From a virus: a stretch of DNA of 20,989 nt. Positions 13,093 to 20,479 of this stretch are shown here, piece after piece (positions within the stretch are counted from its first letter, which is position 1; every line of letters starts with the position of its first letter). The notes under the pieces are model-generated. The model did no database searches, had not been told where the DNA came from, and saw nothing but the letters and a program-made list of their open reading frames with translations. The stretch spans positions 1 to 20,989 of IMG/VR virus record IMGVR_UViG_3300035430_000282, one strand, 5' to 3'. The position numbers and the translations under genes were made by a program.

Positions 13093-14790
13093 ATGTGCGG
13101 AATTTTAGGAGGTAATCTCATTAGTTCCATAGATGACATGAAAGATGGATTAACATCCATGATGCATCGTGGTAGTGAAGGAAATACAATAATTTCATTC
13201 AAGAACGGAATGAAGATGGCACATAATAGATTATCTATCCAAGACTTATCAGAAACAGCAAACCAACCAATGGTTTCGGAATGTGGTAGATATTATCTTA
13301 CATTTAATGGTGAGTTATGGAAATCTACATTTGATAAGTTTGATAAAGAACTTAGGTCAAAACATAATTTTAAAACCAGTAATTCGGATTCAGAATTACT
13401 TTTATATTTTTTGATTGATAATTATAAAAATTTAAAATCAAAAATGAATGAATTGGAAGGTATGTTTTCTTTTGCATTTTATGATAAAGAAGATGATTAC
13501 TTAATTCTTGGTAGAGATTTTATGGGTAGGTTGCCTCTGTATTATTATATTGGTGATGATGGATTTGTATTTTCAAGTGAAGTTAAAGGTTTGACAGAAT
13601 CTATTGATGATTTAAAATATTATAACATAGATAAAGGTTCTAGATTTAACTCAACTTATAAAAAAGAAGAAAAAATACAGATAGTAGAGCCTGGTACTTT
13701 TATAGGATTTAGAAAAAATAATATACATAACCAATACATACCACATCATGTAGTCTGGTTTGATTTTAAACCAAACCCATTTAATATAAACCACCCAACG
13801 GGTTATTATCCAAGAACTGATTCGGAGTTTGAATCATATGATTCCGAAGATAAAGGAATTGATTATTATTCATCTGAATTTAAAAGATTATTAGAAGCCG
13901 CGGTTGAAGATGAAATGATCGCAGATGTACCTATATGTACTATTTTAAGTGGGGGTATTGATAGTACAATAATTAGTTACATTCTTTCTAAGAAATTAAA
14001 ATCTCAAGGAAAGAGATTAACAGCATTCGTAGTAAATGTTACTAAAAATAGAAAATCCAAAGTAAAAGATGACTTATATTACGCAAGATTAGCAGCTGAA
14101 TTATTTGATATAGACTTAATTGAAGTTAATTATGATGAATTAGATGTAGAACGAAAATTAATACATGCTATTTGGGCATCAGAAACTCATAAATGGACTC
14201 AAGTTTCACCTGCTGTGATTCAACTTGGATTAGCTTGGAGAATTAGAAAAGAAGGATTTAAAGTTGTATTTGGTGGTGAAGGTGCAGATGAAATATTTGC
14301 TTCATATGGAGATGTAAAAAGGTTTTGTTGGCATGAACCAATTTGGTATCATCAAAAGAGAGTAAACTTATTAAATAGTTTACATAAAACAAATTTGATT
14401 AGAACAAACAAAGCAATGATGTATGGTGGTGAGGTAGAACTAAGAACACCTTTTATTAATAAAAAAGTCATCGACTTTGGACTAAGAATACCAACAAAAT
14501 ACAGAGATGATAAAGAAGGTAAAGGTACACGAATGAAATATGTTCTAAGAACGGCCTTTGAAGATGAAATTGGTTCATTAAATGAAGAATTATTATGGAG
14601 ACCAAAGAAAACTTTCCAAGTGGGTGCACATAGTGATTTTCTAAAAAAACCAATTTGGAAAAAAAAAATAGAAGACATATTTGAACAATTATTTATAAAA
14701 AAAGATGCAAATAAAGAATTACGACAATTGCTTGCTCAAGGACAAAGCGGACATAACAGAGGTAGTATTACAGAGATTTCCATCGATTAA
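13093..14790 (+). CDS. asnB: Asparagine synthetase (glutamine-hydrolysing), class II amidotransferase
   Basis: The 565-residue protein has both domains of AsnB. The N-terminal glutaminase starts MCGILGG with the catalytic Cys2 and shows HRGSEG, NRLSIQDLS, FNGEL (71-75) and DSELLL. The C-terminal synthetase has the PP-loop LSGGIDST (285-292), FGGEGADEIFASYGD and RTPFINKKVIDF. The usual reaction transfers ammonia from glutamine to an adenylated carboxylate, normally aspartate; AsnB relatives also amidate other acids, so the substrate is not certain. Differences from E. coli AsnB include HRGSEG for HRGPD and an extra Asp/Glu/Tyr-rich stretch (about 236-256) before the synthetase core. It starts one base after the HD gene and overlaps the next gene by 86 bases. 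Confidence 0.85.
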   Translation: MCGILGGNLISSIDDMKDGLTSMMHRGSEGNTIISFKNGMKMAHNRLSIQDLSETANQPMVSECGRYYLTFNGELWKSTFDKFDKELRSKHNFKTSNSDSELLLYFLIDNYKNLKSKMNELEGMFSFAFYDKEDDYLILGRDFMGRLPLYYYIGDDGFVFSSEVKGLTESIDDLKYYNIDKGSRFNSTYKKEEKIQIVEPGTFIGFRKNNIHNQYIPHHVVWFDFKPNPFNINHPTGYYPRTDSEFESYDSEDKGIDYYSSEFKRLLEAAVEDEMIADVPICTILSGGIDSTIISYILSKKLKSQGKRLTAFVVNVTKNRKSKVKDDLYYARLAAELFDIDLIEVNYDELDVERKLIHAIWASETHKWTQVSPAVIQLGLAWRIRKEGFKVVFGGEGADEIFASYGDVKRFCWHEPIWYHQKRVNLLNSLHKTNLIRTNKAMMYGGEVELRTPFINKKVIDFGLRIPTKYRDDKEGKGTRMKYVLRTAFEDEIGSLNEELLWRPKKTFQVGAHSDFLKKPIWKKKIEDIFEQLFIKKDANKELRQLLAQGQSGHNRGSITEISID

Positions 14791-15562
14791 TGTTTTAGGT
14801 GCGTATGAAAAACCTACTTTAGACAAAGACAAAATTAAAGTTTTATCTGTAAAATTTAGCAAGGTTGGTAAGAAAACATTTACTGATTACAAAAATCTTG
14901 AATGGGTAGTCTGTCGTTCTCATGGTATTGATAATGTTAATATAGAAGAAGCTAGAAAAAGAAATATTGGAATTGTAGCAACTGCACCAACCGCCAAACC
15001 TTGTTCTAATTGGATTTACAATAAAATTAAAGAAGATGATTCTATTTTAATTTTTGGTAATGGTGCAATTTCAAGAGAGTTACAGAAGAAAATTGGAAAC
15101 TTTAATGTTGTAAACTCCAAAACATCACAAGAAGAAATAGATAGATATTTAAAATTTTGTAAAACAATTATTATTACAATACCATATAATAAGAAAACTA
15201 AAAATTATTTTGATAGAACATTCTTCTCTAAGATAAAAAATAAAGTAGACATAATTTCAATATCACGTGGAGAAGTGTTTGATAACGCGGCAATCTTAGA
15301 TTTTTCAGTATCAGGTAAGTTAAGAAAGGGTCATTTTGATATTCTTACCACAGATGGTAGAAATAGATTATTAGAAAGAAAAGAAATACGATATTATGAA
15401 CATTCATCATGGGAGTATAATCAAATAAAAGATTCTCAAGGTAAGTTGGGTGGTTATGTAAATATAGAATTTGCTGATAACTTAAAATTAGTTGTAGATA
15501 GTTGTTTAGAAGATAGAGTACAAGATGCTCACCTCAATAGAATAAAGAATGTATGGTTTTAG
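14705..15562 (+). CDS. Compact D-2-hydroxyacid dehydrogenase-like protein
   Basis: The 285-residue product resembles the SerA/PdxB-type NAD-dependent family. It has LEWVVCRSHGIDNVNIEEARKRNIGI and then VATAPT, the nucleotide loop LIFGNGAISREL (third Gly replaced by Ser), the catalytic-Arg step ISISRGEVFDNAAI, and EHSSW where the catalytic His normally sits. The acidic residue expected in a DVF-x-EP motif is not clear (FDILTTDG). Between VATAPT and the GxG loop only about 20 residues remain, against roughly 50 usually, so the inter-domain helices are missing. ATG 14705 overlaps asnB by 86 bases; it is the only ATG in frame. An ATT at 14786 overlapping the asnB stop is an alternative. The family is likely, but activity is uncertain. 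Confidence 0.6.
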   Translation: MQIKNYDNCLLKDKADITEVVLQRFPSINVLGAYEKPTLDKDKIKVLSVKFSKVGKKTFTDYKNLEWVVCRSHGIDNVNIEEARKRNIGIVATAPTAKPCSNWIYNKIKEDDSILIFGNGAISRELQKKIGNFNVVNSKTSQEEIDRYLKFCKTIIITIPYNKKTKNYFDRTFFSKIKNKVDIISISRGEVFDNAAILDFSVSGKLRKGHFDILTTDGRNRLLERKEIRYYEHSSWEYNQIKDSQGKLGGYVNIEFADNLKLVVDSCLEDRVQDAHLNRIKNVWF

Positions 15563-16386
15563 GATTAACAGAAGATACTCCATTAGAGGAATATAAAATC
15601 AAAGGTCGTTCAGTTTGGGTAAAACGAGATGACCTTATGGGTGATGATATAAACCTACCGCCTTGGGGTAAAATGGCTGCAATTTATCGATTAGTTGATA
15701 AGTATGTTGATAAATCTAAACCTTTAACACATCTTTCAGTAGATGGTTCTTGGAGTGGTTGGACACTTGCAGCAATTTGTGAGGATTTAGGAATAGAGTT
15801 TTATTACTCACATCCAAACTCTAAGAAGATTTCTCAAGAACTTTTGGGTATGGTTAAAGAAAAGTATCCATATTGTAAATTTAATCCTATCAGACCTAAT
15901 ATGATGAGTATTATGTATAACTCATTAAAGAAACAAGCAAAAGAAGAAGGATGGCAAATGTTGCCTTATGCGTTCAACCATGATTTTTATATGGATTATC
16001 TTTCAGATAGAATACAACCTTATACACACTTTAAAAATCTTGTAGTTTCAAGTGGTAGTGGAGTTTCTCTTTCTGGTCTTGCAAAAGGATACTTTAGAGA
16101 AGAATTAAAAGAGTTCTGGCCACAAACAGATAAAACAATCTATACAACTTGTGTATCATCTGAAAGTTCTATTAATAAAATGTTAAAGAAAAATGGATTA
16201 GCACAACTACCTATTAAGGTTAGAAAATCAGAATATGATTTTGATGATAGATTAGATGGATACGAGGCACCATTTCAATGTAATCAATTTTGGGATATCA
16301 AACAATGGCATTGGTTAGAAAATAATATAGATTCTATTGAAGGAGATATTCTCTTTTGGAATATCGGTGGAATTTATAAATTTTAA
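15553..16386 (+). CDS. Fold-type II PLP enzyme, ACC deaminase/D-cysteine desulfhydrase-like
   Basis: The 277-residue protein follows the tryptophan synthase beta/ACC deaminase plan. TPLEEY and VWVKRDDLMG match the family's TPL and KREDL elements; Lys40 in NLPPWGKMAAI is the probable PLP Schiff-base lysine; HLSVDGSWSGWTLAAICEDLG corresponds to the GG-x-QSNH helix start, altered here to DGSWSGW; VVSSGSGVSLSGLAKGY (164-180) is the phosphate-binding glycine loop; the end NIGGIYKF corresponds to HTGG-x-x-GLF. It is shorter than ACC deaminase (about 335). The family works on small amino acids (deamination, desulfhydration, beta-replacement). It overlaps the dehydrogenase by 10 bases and closes the run before the next promoter. 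Substrate unknown. Confidence 0.65.
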   Translation: MVLGLTEDTPLEEYKIKGRSVWVKRDDLMGDDINLPPWGKMAAIYRLVDKYVDKSKPLTHLSVDGSWSGWTLAAICEDLGIEFYYSHPNSKKISQELLGMVKEKYPYCKFNPIRPNMMSIMYNSLKKQAKEEGWQMLPYAFNHDFYMDYLSDRIQPYTHFKNLVVSSGSGVSLSGLAKGYFREELKEFWPQTDKTIYTTCVSSESSINKMLKKNGLAQLPIKVRKSEYDFDDRLDGYEAPFQCNQFWDIKQWHWLENNIDSIEGDILFWNIGGIYKF

Positions 16387-16394
16387 AAAAACAC

Positions 16395-16423
16395 TTGACT
16401 TTAAAAAAATAATTCCGTATTAT
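16395..16423 (+). promoter_or_regulatory. Sigma70-type promoter for the 776-residue gene
   Basis: TTGACT (16395-16400), 17 bases, TATTAT (16418-16423). The expected start is near 16430, giving a leader of about 28 bases to ATG 16458, with no Shine-Dalgarno. It separates the two genes that follow from the amino-acid-type enzymes before it. Confidence 0.6.
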
Positions 16424-16457: not shown

Positions 16458-18788
16458 ATGGCGAAAGTATTAGACGAAAAAAAACTAAATCAAGAAAGAA
16501 AAAGAATAGAAGACATCATCCATCTATATAAATCAAAAGATGAATTACATACCACATTATTACAACTTATAAAAGAAAAAATATTTAATGTTTCAATTGT
16601 TTTAACAAGAAAACTATTAAATGATGTATATGTTCTTGACAAAAAATACTTAGAAAGAAATTCTGAAAAATCTAAAATGGATGATGAAAAAAAACAGATA
16701 GAGTTTATTCCATCTCTTCAGCAAAGATATAAGATATCAAGAATATTGAGATGGATTTATGGAAGAGGTTCATATCCGTTTTCATCAACATGGAGTGAAA
16801 AGATGGCAGGTGGGTTCTTGATTGGATGTCTTACCGACTCTGATTCGGGTCAAATAGTAAAAATAAATTTAAAAAACTATTTAACCAATTTTTTAGCTTC
16901 TGTATGGGAGGGGGATTCTAAATCACAAATTAGTAACTTCTTTATTAGAATGAATCATACTAATCCAGAAGAAGGTGTTTTGAAAATTTTAGATGAAAAA
17001 GGTAAAGAAACTAAATGGGTAAGTAAATTAACCGAGAATCCAGAAGTTTTCAAAAATCCAGACCCTCTTATTGAATGTATTGCATTTTGGAAAGAACAAC
17101 AAAAATTAAGTACAACTCCATCTTGTTATTTACATTTTTCATTTATACAAGAACATTATCCTGAATTAGCAAATAGGTTTCTAAATCAACCAATTACTAT
17201 TATTTGTAATAATTATACAGCCGCACAAGAACTGTATGCTTATGTAAAAGAAGCATCGGTCTCTGCAAAACACGAAATACCACAATTACATATGTCTATG
17301 GTTAACACATCATATGGTGCGGATATTAGTGATTGTCATTTAAAAGAAAAAGTATTTAAAGATACTATTTTTATGAATAGGGAATATCCTAATTCTTATC
17401 CTTGGAGTGAAGTGGTTCATCAAATTCATCAAACTAAAAATAAAGGATATACACAAAAAGAAGATTCTTTCTCACATACAATATTTTCATTAGTTCTAAA
17501 TAAACCAGAGGATAATCAGTTCGACCTTAGTCTTTTAAAAAGCTCTCCATTTAATTCAATTTTATGTACACCATTTAATAATGAGGCACTTGATAGAGGA
17601 CAATTTTTGAGTATTTTTTATAATTCATTAACACAAGATAAAAAGGATTTATTTCTTGATTCATTCCTTTTTATATCTGAGTGTTATGGACATTTGCTTA
17701 ATGATGTGTTCATTAACAATAAAATTAACTTAAAAAATTGGTATGAGACCGAACATAGATCTCTAAGAAATTTTATTGAGAATCTATCCAATGAAGGAAA
17801 AATAGAAGTTCCAGACAAATTTTCATTTGATTATACCAATAGTCAATTTAAGAAATTTCAATATACACATAGTGATTATCATATTTTGAATTGGATAATA
17901 GTATGTTCTCTTGGATTCTTATTTAATAATAAAACAAATAAAAATCTTGGAGCTATAAAAATTCAAGAAATATTTGAAACTATGTTAAACCAATTCAAAT
18001 CAAATTGGTTTGTATATCTTTCAAACAAAGATAATGTTAAGTTTTACACAGATACGAAACAATATTTAAAATTTGAAGAAATATTCAAAAGACCTCCATC
18101 ATCTATCATTGAAATGCTTTTACACACAACATGGGATTTAAATGTTTTAAGTACCGCAATAGGTAACTTTATTCAAACAGAAGTTTTGGTAGAGGTACAT
18201 AAGTTGTATGTAGATAATGTGGCTAATTCAAAACTTAGAAATTCATTTGAAACTGTACTAAATAAACCAAACTCTACTATTAAGGTTTTTGATTTTGAAA
18301 TGTACAATGCATATGGTGAAGTTATCAAGTGGAAAGGTGGTATAGATATGGGTCATCCTTTAAATAAAATATTGGGTGGTGATATGAAAAAGAGCGAAGT
18401 TATATTTGAAGATTCTGTCTTGAATCAGAATTCTTCAAAGGAACGAGATATAGTAAAAGACCCTAAGAAATACGAATATATTTTATTCAAAGTTCATCAA
18501 AAAAAACTAGCTGATGTTATTAGTTCAATACCAAATTATACTGATATTATTTCTTTACCTGATGCAATGTTAACACCTGAAGATGTGGTCAACAAAGAAA
18601 GAGTTCAAATTGAAACTTTTAGATTTGATTGTTTTGTAGCTTACATCACATGGAAATATGATGACCCAAATAAAGTACAAGAAATAAAAAAATGGGGAGA
18701 ATTGGAATGTGGTGATTGTAATAATTCTTGGGATTACCTAATAGACCCACCTCAAGAGTACATTGATACATTAGAAAGTTTTATATAA
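16458..18788 (+). CDS. Large unrecognised protein (776 residues)
   Basis: I cannot place this protein in a family. The N-terminus (residues 1-50) is a charged, probably coiled helix with Lys/Glu-rich runs; about 95-125 holds RYKISRILRWIYGRGSYPF and KMAGGFLIGCL; the middle is a long mixed alpha/beta region with many aromatic residues (for example HSDYHILNWIIVCSLGFLF near 475); the C-terminus has a CGDC pair (750-753) followed by SWDYLIDPP. No Walker, nuclease, helicase or transmembrane pattern is convincing. It has its own promoter and its stop directly adjoins the ATG of the methyltransferase, so the two are very likely co-translated and may form one functional unit. Its size and codon use match neighbouring genes, so it is a real gene. 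Confidence 0.65.
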   Translation: MAKVLDEKKLNQERKRIEDIIHLYKSKDELHTTLLQLIKEKIFNVSIVLTRKLLNDVYVLDKKYLERNSEKSKMDDEKKQIEFIPSLQQRYKISRILRWIYGRGSYPFSSTWSEKMAGGFLIGCLTDSDSGQIVKINLKNYLTNFLASVWEGDSKSQISNFFIRMNHTNPEEGVLKILDEKGKETKWVSKLTENPEVFKNPDPLIECIAFWKEQQKLSTTPSCYLHFSFIQEHYPELANRFLNQPITIICNNYTAAQELYAYVKEASVSAKHEIPQLHMSMVNTSYGADISDCHLKEKVFKDTIFMNREYPNSYPWSEVVHQIHQTKNKGYTQKEDSFSHTIFSLVLNKPEDNQFDLSLLKSSPFNSILCTPFNNEALDRGQFLSIFYNSLTQDKKDLFLDSFLFISECYGHLLNDVFINNKINLKNWYETEHRSLRNFIENLSNEGKIEVPDKFSFDYTNSQFKKFQYTHSDYHILNWIIVCSLGFLFNNKTNKNLGAIKIQEIFETMLNQFKSNWFVYLSNKDNVKFYTDTKQYLKFEEIFKRPPSSIIEMLLHTTWDLNVLSTAIGNFIQTEVLVEVHKLYVDNVANSKLRNSFETVLNKPNSTIKVFDFEMYNAYGEVIKWKGGIDMGHPLNKILGGDMKKSEVIFEDSVLNQNSSKERDIVKDPKKYEYILFKVHQKKLADVISSIPNYTDIISLPDAMLTPEDVVNKERVQIETFRFDCFVAYITWKYDDPNKVQEIKKWGELECGDCNNSWDYLIDPPQEYIDTLESFI

Positions 18789-20012
18789 ATGACTAACGGA
18801 GAAGATATATTTGAAAAGTATAAAGGGATGAAACCCTATCTTTACATCTCACCAGAGGAATGGACTGAGATTAAAGAAACATATCCTAAAGATGTGGTAA
18901 AGGAACGATTGGCAGAAGTTTGTATGACCTACCCACTTCCTTACGCAGATATATCAGAACAAGATTGTATTTCCGAATATGGTAAATTAAAAGGAATCAA
19001 ATGGCCAGATTACTTTAAAGAAGGTGAGTGGTTTCCAAGAAAGGCAGTAGAATCTCGTTATCCTTTAACTTACGAAGGAACTCAAAAATACTTTAGTAGA
19101 TTAAATACTGGTAATGATGTATCAAATTATTTCCAACAAGCAAACAGATGGAGTGTCGATGGTTCAGTTTCACCAGGTCCGAAAAGAACTTGGGAATCTA
19201 AGAAGTTTATGACCTCATTAATGGGTTCTGCATATTCTTTGAAACTACCACAGATTGGTAAAAGAGAATTAAGAACAATGATAGGGTTAAGAAAGTATAT
19301 CTGTTCTCAGTTCAAACCATCTATAGCCAAGATGTTTTATGAGTATAGTAATGCAAAGACAGTTTTAGATTTTTCAATGGGATGGGGAGATAGATTGGCA
19401 GGTGCTTTTACTGCAGAATGCGTTGAACATTATGTTGGATTGGATCCTCGTAAAGAAAATCATCCTATCTATGAACAACAAAGAGATTTTTATGAAAAAC
19501 ATACTACTTTCTTTGAATCACCAACTAAAACTGATTTCTATTGTTCACCTGCAGAGGATTTCGATTATAGTGAATATGAAAATTATTTTGATTTAGTTTT
19601 TACTTCACCACCATATTTTTCAGTAGAACGATATTCACATGATGATACTCAAAGTTGGGTTAGATATAAAAATATTGATGATTGGAATGAAAACTTCTTA
19701 CACAAAACTCTTGGTAAAATAATTCCAACTGTGAAAAAAGGTGGTATCATTGCAATAAATATTGCTGATGTATATTCAAATACTAAAGGTGGAAAGGATT
19801 GGTTAGAAATCACCAATCCTATGGGAGACTTTCTAACATCACAAGGTATGATTTATAAAGGATGTATAGGAATGGAAATGGCAAAAAGACCAAATAGTGG
19901 TGGTGCTGGAACTGCTAAAGATACCGAACAATATAAAGATGAAACTCTTCAATTAACAGAAGAAACAAAAGATAAAAGATTTTGTGAACCAATTTGGGTG
20001 TTTGAAAAATAA
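18789..20012 (+). CDS. SAM-dependent methyltransferase, DNA N4/N6 type (TSPPY)
   Basis: The 407-residue protein has a C-terminal Rossmann methyltransferase: motif I TVLDFSMGWGDRLAGA (191-206), then VGLDPRKEN for the acidic ligand of SAM, and motif IV FDLVFTSPPYFSVERYS (268-283). [D/N/S]PPY is the catalytic motif of amino-methyltransferases acting on adenine N6 or cytosine N4. GGIIAINIAD and the late EPIWVFEK strands complete the fold. Residues 1-190 are a separate, Trp/Tyr-rich region (for example KWPDYFKEGEWFP) that I do not recognise; it could contact DNA or another substrate. No restriction enzyme lies nearby. The ATG follows the preceding stop without a gap. DNA is the likeliest target, but other nucleic-acid or small-molecule substrates are possible. 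Confidence 0.7.
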   Translation: MTNGEDIFEKYKGMKPYLYISPEEWTEIKETYPKDVVKERLAEVCMTYPLPYADISEQDCISEYGKLKGIKWPDYFKEGEWFPRKAVESRYPLTYEGTQKYFSRLNTGNDVSNYFQQANRWSVDGSVSPGPKRTWESKKFMTSLMGSAYSLKLPQIGKRELRTMIGLRKYICSQFKPSIAKMFYEYSNAKTVLDFSMGWGDRLAGAFTAECVEHYVGLDPRKENHPIYEQQRDFYEKHTTFFESPTKTDFYCSPAEDFDYSEYENYFDLVFTSPPYFSVERYSHDDTQSWVRYKNIDDWNENFLHKTLGKIIPTVKKGGIIAINIADVYSNTKGGKDWLEITNPMGDFLTSQGMIYKGCIGMEMAKRPNSGGAGTAKDTEQYKDETLQLTEETKDKRFCEPIWVFEK

Positions 20013-20025
20013 TTAATGTTTGAGC

Positions 20026-20086: not shown

Positions 20087-20479
20087 ATGACTGATTTTCA
20101 AAAAGTTTCACAATGGTTAAAAGAAAATTGTGATGTCGATGTAAAACTTGGACAAACTACCTCTTATATCGGTGGTAGTGTAAAAACTATTTTTATTCAT
20201 CACAATTATAATTTAGAAAAGAATGGATTAATCGCTCTACTTCATGAAGCTGGTCATGCAATACAACCTTCAGAAGATGAAGATGTATTCGGGCCAAACA
20301 GATATAAAGTAGTTGATGATTTAGAACATCCAAAGGAATTTAAGATGTACCAATTTCTAAATGAAGTTGATGCATGGGATAGAGGAGAATCTATCGCTCT
20401 TGAGTTGAATATACAACTTGACAAAAAAAGATGGACAAAAGAAAAAGAAGAAGCTTTATTAACTTATTACGTAGCCTAA
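20087..20479 (+). CDS. HEAGH-motif zinc metalloprotein
   Basis: The 130-residue protein has the zincin motif LLHEAGHAIQ (HEAGH at 53-57) on a helix after a strand, IFIHHNY, and a later acidic helix MYQFLNEVDAWDRGESIAL that could supply the third zinc ligand (Glu or Asp), as in small IrrE/ImmA-type (M78) peptidases, which cut regulators. The length is close to the minimal core of that group. It lacks a signal peptide, so it should act in the cytoplasm. It starts after a strong promoter and its TAA stop is part of the polymerase ribosome-binding site (TAAGGAGG), tying the two genes together. Zinc-dependent protease activity is inferred from the motif; the target is unknown. Confidence 0.6.
   Translation: MTDFQKVSQWLKENCDVDVKLGQTTSYIGGSVKTIFIHHNYNLEKNGLIALLHEAGHAIQPSEDEDVFGPNRYKVVDDLEHPKEFKMYQFLNEVDAWDRGESIALELNIQLDKKRWTKEKEEALLTYYVA

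What the first reader, a model, noticed from the sequence alone, without database searches (positions are those of the whole stretch)
16458..18788. 776-residue orphan fused in operon to a methyltransferase
The gene takes over a tenth of the window, has its own promoter, and its stop adjoins the methyltransferase start, yet shows no familiar motif apart from a C-terminal CGDC pair. A large unknown protein next to a methyltransferase is the layout of several defence, anti-defence and modification systems.
Basis: partly seen in the sequence, partly recalled or inferred. Interest (0 to 1): 0.6.

Follow-up and report, generated by a model that had tools for sequence, protein, structure and literature searches.

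The report
Swappable phage gene beside a methyltransferase
A large unknown phage protein sits in a slot next to a conserved DNA-methyltransferase gene where related phages carry different genes, several of them nucleases; short motifs hint, without proof, that it is a much-changed DNA-cutting enzyme related to known anti-phage enzymes.

Summary
The 776-codon ORF is real (16458-18788). Its stop codon adjoins the methyltransferase ATG, a promoter-like site precedes it, and no family library, phage record or PDB sequence matches it. The "CGDC pair" is not conserved.

Only one relative was found: a 756-aa protein in three freshwater viral contigs (identical copies). It is 21% identical over 619 residues and sits at the same place; neighbouring genes there are 49-62% identical.

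The pairing with the methyltransferase is not fixed. Across 74 methyltransferase lineages with readable upstream DNA, 30 gene families occupy the position. Near-identical phages (95-99% flanks) carry different genes there, exchanged cleanly up to the methyltransferase start. The cassettes include Pfam-detectable GmrSD_N+HNH proteins and a GIY-YIG protein, but also GroEL.

The ORF and its relative share spaced GmrSD-like motifs: QR...W...(D/E)G.SK near the N-terminus and H-x6-GG-x14-N near the C-terminus. These motifs were chosen after inspection. Profile, HMM, Smith-Waterman and AlphaFold tests did not support the link, and DGQQR, FxxxN and the middle HNH Asn are missing.

Best reading: a fast-evolving GmrSD/SspE-like nuclease in a hot-swap effector slot. 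It is not filed as a member of that family. Main rival: a free-standing homing nuclease.

The parts
16395..16423 (+). promoter-like site (TTGACT-17-TATTAT) in front of the orphan
   Evidence: the longer motif CTTGACTT..TATAT occurs twice in the window, here and at 20025
16458..18788 (+). orphan CDS, 776 aa
   Evidence: homologue P0001 in L053
16695..17327 (+). putative ParB/Srx (GmrS/DUF262-like) N-terminal domain, residues about 80-290: Q89-R90, W112, E151-G-D-S-K155
   Evidence: motif spacing shared with L053 and GmrSD-like neighbours; profile and structure tests did not support it
16722..16727 (+). QR pair (residues 89-90), equivalent to the QR of GmrS
   Evidence: motif definition from PMC4619093
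16908..16922 (+). EGDSK (residues 151-155; DGESK in L053), at the place of DGQQR
17415..18257 (+). putative mainly helical middle region, residues about 320-600
   Evidence: secondary structure of a very low-confidence model only; weak
18345..18425 (+). putative degenerate HNH motif, residues 630-656: D-x-G-H633-x6-GG-x14-N656, middle Asn absent
   Evidence: pattern in 5 of 105 ORF clusters, all GmrSD-like or orphan family; HMM test negative
18708..18719 (+).
18789..20012 (+). conserved N6/N4-type DNA methyltransferase (TSPPY motif), 407 aa; constant neighbour of the variable slot
   Evidence: PF01555 E 2e-5, just under its cut-off; phrog_12517; DNA-methyltransferase PHROGs; at least 589 relatives in viral contigs
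13093..14790 (+). asparagine-synthase-like enzyme; upstream block syntenic with L053
14705..15562 (+). 2-hydroxyacid-dehydrogenase-like enzyme; among fetched loci found only where the orphan family is found
15553..16386 (+). pyridoxal-phosphate-type (threonine dehydratase-like) enzyme, left-hand neighbour of the slot

Best explanation
The orphan is an exchangeable effector cassette in a slot that ends at the start codon of a conserved phage DNA methyltransferase. Shown: the slot, its clean exchange between near-identical phages, and the presence of GmrSD_N+HNH proteins in it. Inferred: the orphan works like a GmrSD/SspE/BrxU-type enzyme. A ParB/Srx-fold N-terminal domain (QR ... (D/E)G.SK) would bind NTP and sense the state of the DNA, and through a helical middle drive a C-terminal HNH-like (H-x6-GG-x14-N) nuclease or nickase. 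The methyltransferase would mark the phage's own DNA so that the cassette acts on host or competitor-phage DNA. Rapid loss of sequence identity and swapping of cassettes would reflect an arms race. Separate estimates: exchangeable slot 0.9; GmrSD-like architecture of the orphan 0.55; nuclease whose target choice depends on DNA modification 0.35. It is not filed as a GmrSD member, because defining motifs were tested and not met.
For: Slot: 84 methyltransferase lineages at 97% identity from 255 full-length loci, 74 with upstream DNA, 81 lineage-neighbour combinations over 30 families; 7 lineages hold two different neighbours. L016 against L018: flanks 97.9% (5.7 kb) and 98.1% (3.9 kb) identical, with an unrelated cassette between (500-aa-type family against GmrSD_N+HNH). 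L028 against L036: 95.3% and 99.2%. L053 (orphan homologue) against L049: 90% and 89%. The right-hand border lies within about 20 bases of the methyltransferase start in the four pairs compared. Cassette content: GmrSD_N + HNH in L018 and L069; similar proteins close by or elsewhere in the same records: L244, L259, L266, and L267 (GmrSD_N only). Motifs: 'H.{6,7}GG.{14}N' hits orphan 633 and L053 643 and 5 of 105 ORF clusters, all GmrSD-like or orphan family; single-sequence shuffle rates (x6 form) 0.0013 and 0.0024, joint column shuffles 0 of 20,000. 'QR.{40,75}[DEN]G.[QHS][RK]' hits 7 of 105 clusters, all GmrS- or ParB-like or orphan family; the stricter version with W hits 5 of 105; joint column shuffles 0 of 10,000 for each. 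An alignment tool put QR, W and DG in register without anchors, though I chose the fragment ends. Fast divergence: orphan 21% identical to L053 while syntenic AsnB, dehydrogenase, PLP enzyme and methyltransferase are 49, 61, 55 and 62%.
Against: No statistical similarity to GmrSD: hhalign of the orphan pair against 105 clusters gives no GmrSD hit above noise; HMMs of neighbouring GmrS and HNH domains miss the orphan (E 21, 2.1 and 14 with three GmrS models; not among the 60 rows listed for the HNH model); Smith-Waterman Z at most 1.6 for the orphan and 2.9 for L053 against GmrSD-like proteins, no better than unrelated proteins; PF03235 finds nothing in the window. DGQQR is EGDSK, FxxxN is YVKEA, the middle HNH Asn is absent. 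Some Pfam-type GmrSD proteins of the set themselves miss the loose N-terminal pattern (L265, L266), so it is neither complete nor decisive. Patterns were chosen after seeing the sequences. AlphaFold failed (pLDDT 32.8 and 41.8), and a PDB fold search with the second model gave no fold. Some cassettes are plainly not nucleases (GroEL; by eye), and many lineages have an ordinary phage gene at the position. No methylation or cleavage data exist.
Confidence: 0.45

Rival explanations
1. The cassettes, the orphan included, are mainly free-standing homing endonucleases or other selfish elements that insert next to a conserved gene in a replication-gene region; the methyltransferase is a landing place, not a partner.
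For: One cassette is a GIY-YIG protein (L019; Pfam E 0.0049, PADLOC homing endonuclease E 6e-5). Cassettes switch cleanly at one border between near-identical genomes. The slot lies between metabolic and, in relatives, ribonucleotide-reductase-like genes (by eye) and DNA polymerase B; homing endonucleases are reported near DNA polymerase and ribonucleotide reductase genes and clustered in favourable loci (PMC10448857, abstract and passages).
Against: The GmrSD_N proteins in the slot belong to NTP-dependent restriction families, GroEL is neither, and the PMC10448857 main text has no occurrence of DUF262, ParB, GmrSD or methyltransferase. No homing-nuclease domain was found in the orphan by Pfam or PADLOC.
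Confidence: 0.25
2. The orphan is a dedicated restriction enzyme of a fixed type II-like restriction-modification pair with the adjacent methyltransferase.
For: Adjacent co-directional genes with the stop next to the start; the same order in L053.
Against: The partner is exchanged while the methyltransferase stays 97% or more identical; the methyltransferase has hundreds of relatives, but the orphan family was found in only one further lineage.
Confidence: 0.07
3. The orphan belongs with the AsnB - hydroxyacid dehydrogenase - PLP enzyme block as part of a small-molecule or DNA hypermodification pathway, not as a nuclease.
For: The dehydrogenase gene was found in 15 of 268 fetched loci, exactly the 15 that hold the orphan family (these are three contigs with identical proteins), and the block that differs between L053 and L049 covers all four genes.
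Against: Only two independent lineages; AsnB and PLP genes occur widely without the orphan (124 and 55 of 268 loci).
Confidence: 0.1
4. A phage protein of unrelated, truly new fold and function; the GmrSD-like motifs are chance.
For: All unbiased similarity tests are negative; motifs were picked after the fact.
Against: Two independent motif sets, in the order seen in GmrSD, conserved in the one homologue, and rare in background.
Confidence: 0.13

Closest known systems
GmrSD / BrxU / SspE (DUF262 + HNH/DUF1524 modification-sensing enzymes; PMC4619093 and PMC10952713, passages read)
   Same: Possible N-terminal ParB/Srx-type domain with a QR pair and (D/E)G..K, long middle region, C-terminal H-x6-GG-x14-N motif; lies beside a DNA-modification gene; true GmrSD_N+HNH proteins occupy the same slot in related phages.
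   Different: No HMM or profile match; DGQQR replaced by EGDSK/DGESK, FxxxN and the middle HNH Asn missing; encoded by a phage; part of an exchangeable slot.
Free-standing phage homing endonucleases (PMC10448857, abstract and passages read)
   Same: Nuclease-like genes placed beside conserved replication genes and exchanged between near-identical phages.
   Different: No homing-endonuclease domain found in the orphan; the slot also takes GmrSD_N proteins and GroEL.
Type II restriction-modification pair
   Same: Large ORF adjacent to a DNA methyltransferase.
   Different: Partner not fixed.

Membership tests
GmrSD (DUF262 + HNH) | match to the GmrSD_N (PF03235) profile | tested here: not met
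   no hit at E<=10; same for the homologue P0001
GmrSD (DUF262 + HNH) | QR pair upstream of the nucleotide-binding motif | tested here: met
   Q89-R90, conserved in L053
GmrSD (DUF262 + HNH) | (I/V)DGQQR motif | tested here: not met
   EGDSK in the orphan, DGESK in L053; only [D/E]-G and a basic residue kept
GmrSD (DUF262 + HNH) | FxxxN motif | tested here: not met
   aligned stretch reads YVKEA (orphan) and YHREG (L053)
GmrSD (DUF262 + HNH) | C-terminal HNH nuclease motif | tested here: inconclusive
   H-x6-GG-x14-N spacing present in both homologues, middle Asn absent, HMM negative
GmrSD (DUF262 + HNH) | ParB/Srx fold of the N-terminal domain | tested here: inconclusive
   model of low confidence (pLDDT 41.8), no PDB match with E<=0.001
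GmrSD (DUF262 + HNH) | NTP-dependent cleavage of modified DNA | not testable with these tools
   needs purified protein
Fixed restriction-modification pair | cognate nuclease and methyltransferase inherited together | tested here: not met
   different neighbours beside methyltransferases at least 97% identical
Free-standing homing endonuclease | recognisable homing nuclease domain | tested here: not met
   none in Pfam or PADLOC for the orphan
Free-standing homing endonuclease | insertion at a conserved site next to an important gene | tested here: inconclusive
   sharp right-hand border at the methyltransferase start; cleavage of a cassette-less site not tested

The most novel reading that the evidence does not exclude
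Hundreds of large environmental phages may share a modular system in which one conserved DNA methyltransferase serves a slot where unrelated effector genes (GmrSD-like HNH, GIY-YIG and other nuclease-like proteins, and this highly divergent orphan family) are swapped like cartridges. That would be a phage-borne restriction repertoire with constant self-marking and an exchangeable weapon.
Probability: 0.3. Interest if true: 0.8.

Novelty: new variant of a known kind. Interest (0 to 1): 0.58.

Why it matters
If the reading holds, phages keep an interchangeable set of DNA-attacking effectors beside a constant self-marking enzyme, a mirror image of bacterial defence islands. It would give a defined slot, delimited at one end by a start codon, for harvesting unknown phage nucleases, and would explain why some large phage 'orphans' have no relatives: they evolve far faster than their syntenic neighbours. 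The swap itself (near-identical flanks, different cassette) is directly visible and can be counted in existing data.

Tried and rejected
Fixed pairing with the methyltransferase: rejected. CGDC zinc site: rejected, not conserved. PADLOC Csm3 hit to the orphan (E 0.0062, 61 residues): treated as chance, as were the PHROG hits at E 0.06-0.08 and an HrpA hit to P0001 (E 0.0031).

Searches for more relatives of the orphan that found none beyond L053: viral contigs by peptide patterns, genome contigs, phage records by tblastn, whole viral records with the two-sequence profile in two calls of 50 handles (2 of 50 matched, both the known protein; 0 of 50), and all ORFs of the fetched loci. The pattern-based contig scans need short exact peptide patterns, so they do not prove absence. 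The 756-aa homologue P0001 likewise has no phage-record relative, and only identical copies turned up in viral contigs.

Similarity tests of the GmrSD idea that failed: hhalign, HNH and GmrS HMMs, Smith-Waterman Z, two AlphaFold jobs, PDB fold search on the second model. Positive control: the same GmrS HMM recovers L030 at E 5.5e-5, and L018 recovers the other Pfam-type GmrSD proteins at Z 7 or more, but neither recovers L264. The tests therefore have limited reach for very divergent members.

Literature: eight searches were run. None of the listed titles or abstract openings describes this slot. Three papers were read in part (PMC4619093 and PMC10952713, passages; PMC10448857, abstract, outline and passages); for all others only the search listing was seen. 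No claim of first description is made beyond these eight searches.

Full report
What is there. The ORF at 16458-18788 is 776 codons long, runs ATG to TAA, and its stop is directly followed by the ATG of a 407-aa methyltransferase. It is far longer than chance (longest stop-free run 210 codons in 200 shuffles). A promoter-like TTGACT-17-TATTAT precedes it, and a longer form of the motif occurs just twice in the window, before this ORF and after the methyltransferase, so the two genes may form one transcription unit. The window is a fragment of a large tailed phage (RecA-like, helicase, dUTPase-like, amino-acid enzymes, DNA polymerase B). The product names of some of these come from my reading of the sequences, not from a call.

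Family searches. Nothing in Pfam or NCBIfam, nothing convincing in PHROGs or PADLOC, nothing in the PDB by sequence, and no phage record matches the orphan. Among all ORFs of the fetched loci one relative of the orphan appears: a 756-aa protein just before the methyltransferase in L053, L048, L082 and overlapping loci, 21% identical over 619 residues (BLASTP E 7e-9 as a single comparison; 5e-6 in the locus database; phmmer only E 3.5e-4 with a large composition bias). It lies in three contigs whose copies are identical, so it counts as one lineage. Synteny backs homology: AsnB-like, dehydrogenase-like, PLP-type, orphan, methyltransferase in the same order, with identities 49, 61, 55, 21 and 62%.

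The slot. For 255 loci with a full methyltransferase I grouped methyltransferases at 97% identity: 84 lineages, 74 with upstream DNA. Thirty families of genes occupy the position directly upstream, and seven lineages show two different neighbours. Many are ordinary phage genes (an acetyltransferase-like family, an HD-like family, a PLP-type family, a clamp-like family; names by eye). Others are large cassettes: GmrSD_N+HNH proteins (L018, L069), a GIY-YIG protein (L019), a ResIII-helicase-like protein (L057), GroEL-like proteins (L030; by eye), and several without any convincing library hit that look ParB-like or GHKL-like to me (L044, L093, L012, L013, L081; by eye only; Pfam gave nothing convincing for those scanned). 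DNA comparison shows the exchange: L016 and L018 are 98% identical on both sides with different genes between; L028 and L036 are 95.3% and 99.2% identical; L053 and L049, which hold the orphan homologue and an unrelated 600-aa protein, are 90% and 89% identical; L009 and L014 are a less clean case (82-93%). In all four pairs the right-hand border is within about 20 bases of the methyltransferase start. Further GmrSD-like proteins sit one gene away, downstream of the methyltransferase or elsewhere in the same records: L244, L259, L266 and L267 with Pfam hits (L266 over the GmrSD_N cut-off, the others under it), and L031 and L264 by motif (L031 also by HMM). A family search for PF03235 over 50 records found it in 5.

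What the orphan may be. The GmrS signature motifs are a QR pair, (I/V)DGQQR and FxxxN, followed by a long helical linker and an HNH motif (PMC4619093, passages; the same domains in BrxU and SspE, PMC10952713, passages). In the orphan and in L053 I find QR (89; 84), a W and then EGDSK/DGESK where DGQQR would be, and at the other end D-x-G-H-x6-GG-x14-N (H633; H643). I tested the specificity of both patterns on 105 clusters of ORFs of at least 250 aa from the fetched loci: the C-terminal pattern hits 5 clusters, the N-terminal one 7 (5 with the W), and all hits are GmrSD-, GmrS- or ParB-like families or the orphan family (the ParB-like label of L093 is by eye). Shuffling aligned columns of the pair never reproduced either pattern (0 of 20,000; 0 of 10,000). 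These patterns were written after looking at the sequences, and the tolerances were set wide enough to include the orphan. The tests measure rarity, not a blind prediction.

What speaks against it. Every blind similarity test failed: profile-profile comparison, HMMs trained on the neighbouring GmrS and HNH domains, Smith-Waterman Z-scores, and two structure predictions that were unusable (pLDDT 32.8 and 41.8), the second giving no fold in the PDB. The catalytic details differ: R to K and QQ to DS in the nucleotide motif, the Asn of FxxxN absent, the middle Asn of HNH absent. So the family claim is 'works like, perhaps', not membership.

Mechanism. The best-supported explanation is an exchangeable effector: NTP-driven DNA sensing by a ParB/Srx-type domain coupled to an HNH-type cutter or nickase, with the constant methyltransferase marking self. 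Shown: slot, exchange, presence of true GmrSD_N+HNH proteins in it, fast divergence. Inferred: fold, nuclease activity, dependence on methylation, target (host or rival phage). The closest rival is a homing endonuclease locus, since homing nucleases are reported beside DNA polymerase and ribonucleotide reductase genes (PMC10448857, abstract and passages), and at least one cassette here is GIY-YIG. A second rival ties the orphan to the AsnB-dehydrogenase-PLP block, because the dehydrogenase was found only where the orphan family is (15 of 268 loci, one lineage).

Verdict. It is a new variant of a known kind, interesting for the swap slot and for the extreme divergence of its cassettes.

Noticed in passing
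13093-16386: AsnB-like, 2-hydroxyacid-dehydrogenase-like and PLP-type genes overlap head to tail just before the slot; the dehydrogenase was seen only with the orphan family (15 of 268 loci), which may point to an amino-acid or DNA-decoration pathway.
   Followed up: partly
L013:9215-10435, L080:2449-3666, L046:9131-10363: A second, clearly related methyltransferase lies directly downstream of the first in many relatives; tandem copies could differ in specificity.
   Followed up: no
L030:6391-8013, L031:1394-3016, L033:6351-7970: The same slot holds a full-length GroEL-like chaperonin gene in some phages (by eye).
   Followed up: no
L049:6184-7986 and L264:1719-3644: Two more large proteins without Pfam or NCBIfam hits carry GmrS-like stretches (DIEHR, NGGHR), and L264 also an HNH-like spacing; a 2-sequence profile of L049 aligned to the GmrSD group at E 0.001.
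   Followed up: partly
20087-20479: 130-aa protein with an HEAGH stretch (zinc-peptidase-like by eye; weak M3-peptidase hit) behind the second promoter-like site; a homologue also sits in the slot position in L014:7573-8001.
   Followed up: no
L033:9828-11297, L031:4345-5673: GmrSD-like proteins also sit downstream of the methyltransferase, so there may be a second variable slot before DNA polymerase.
   Followed up: partly
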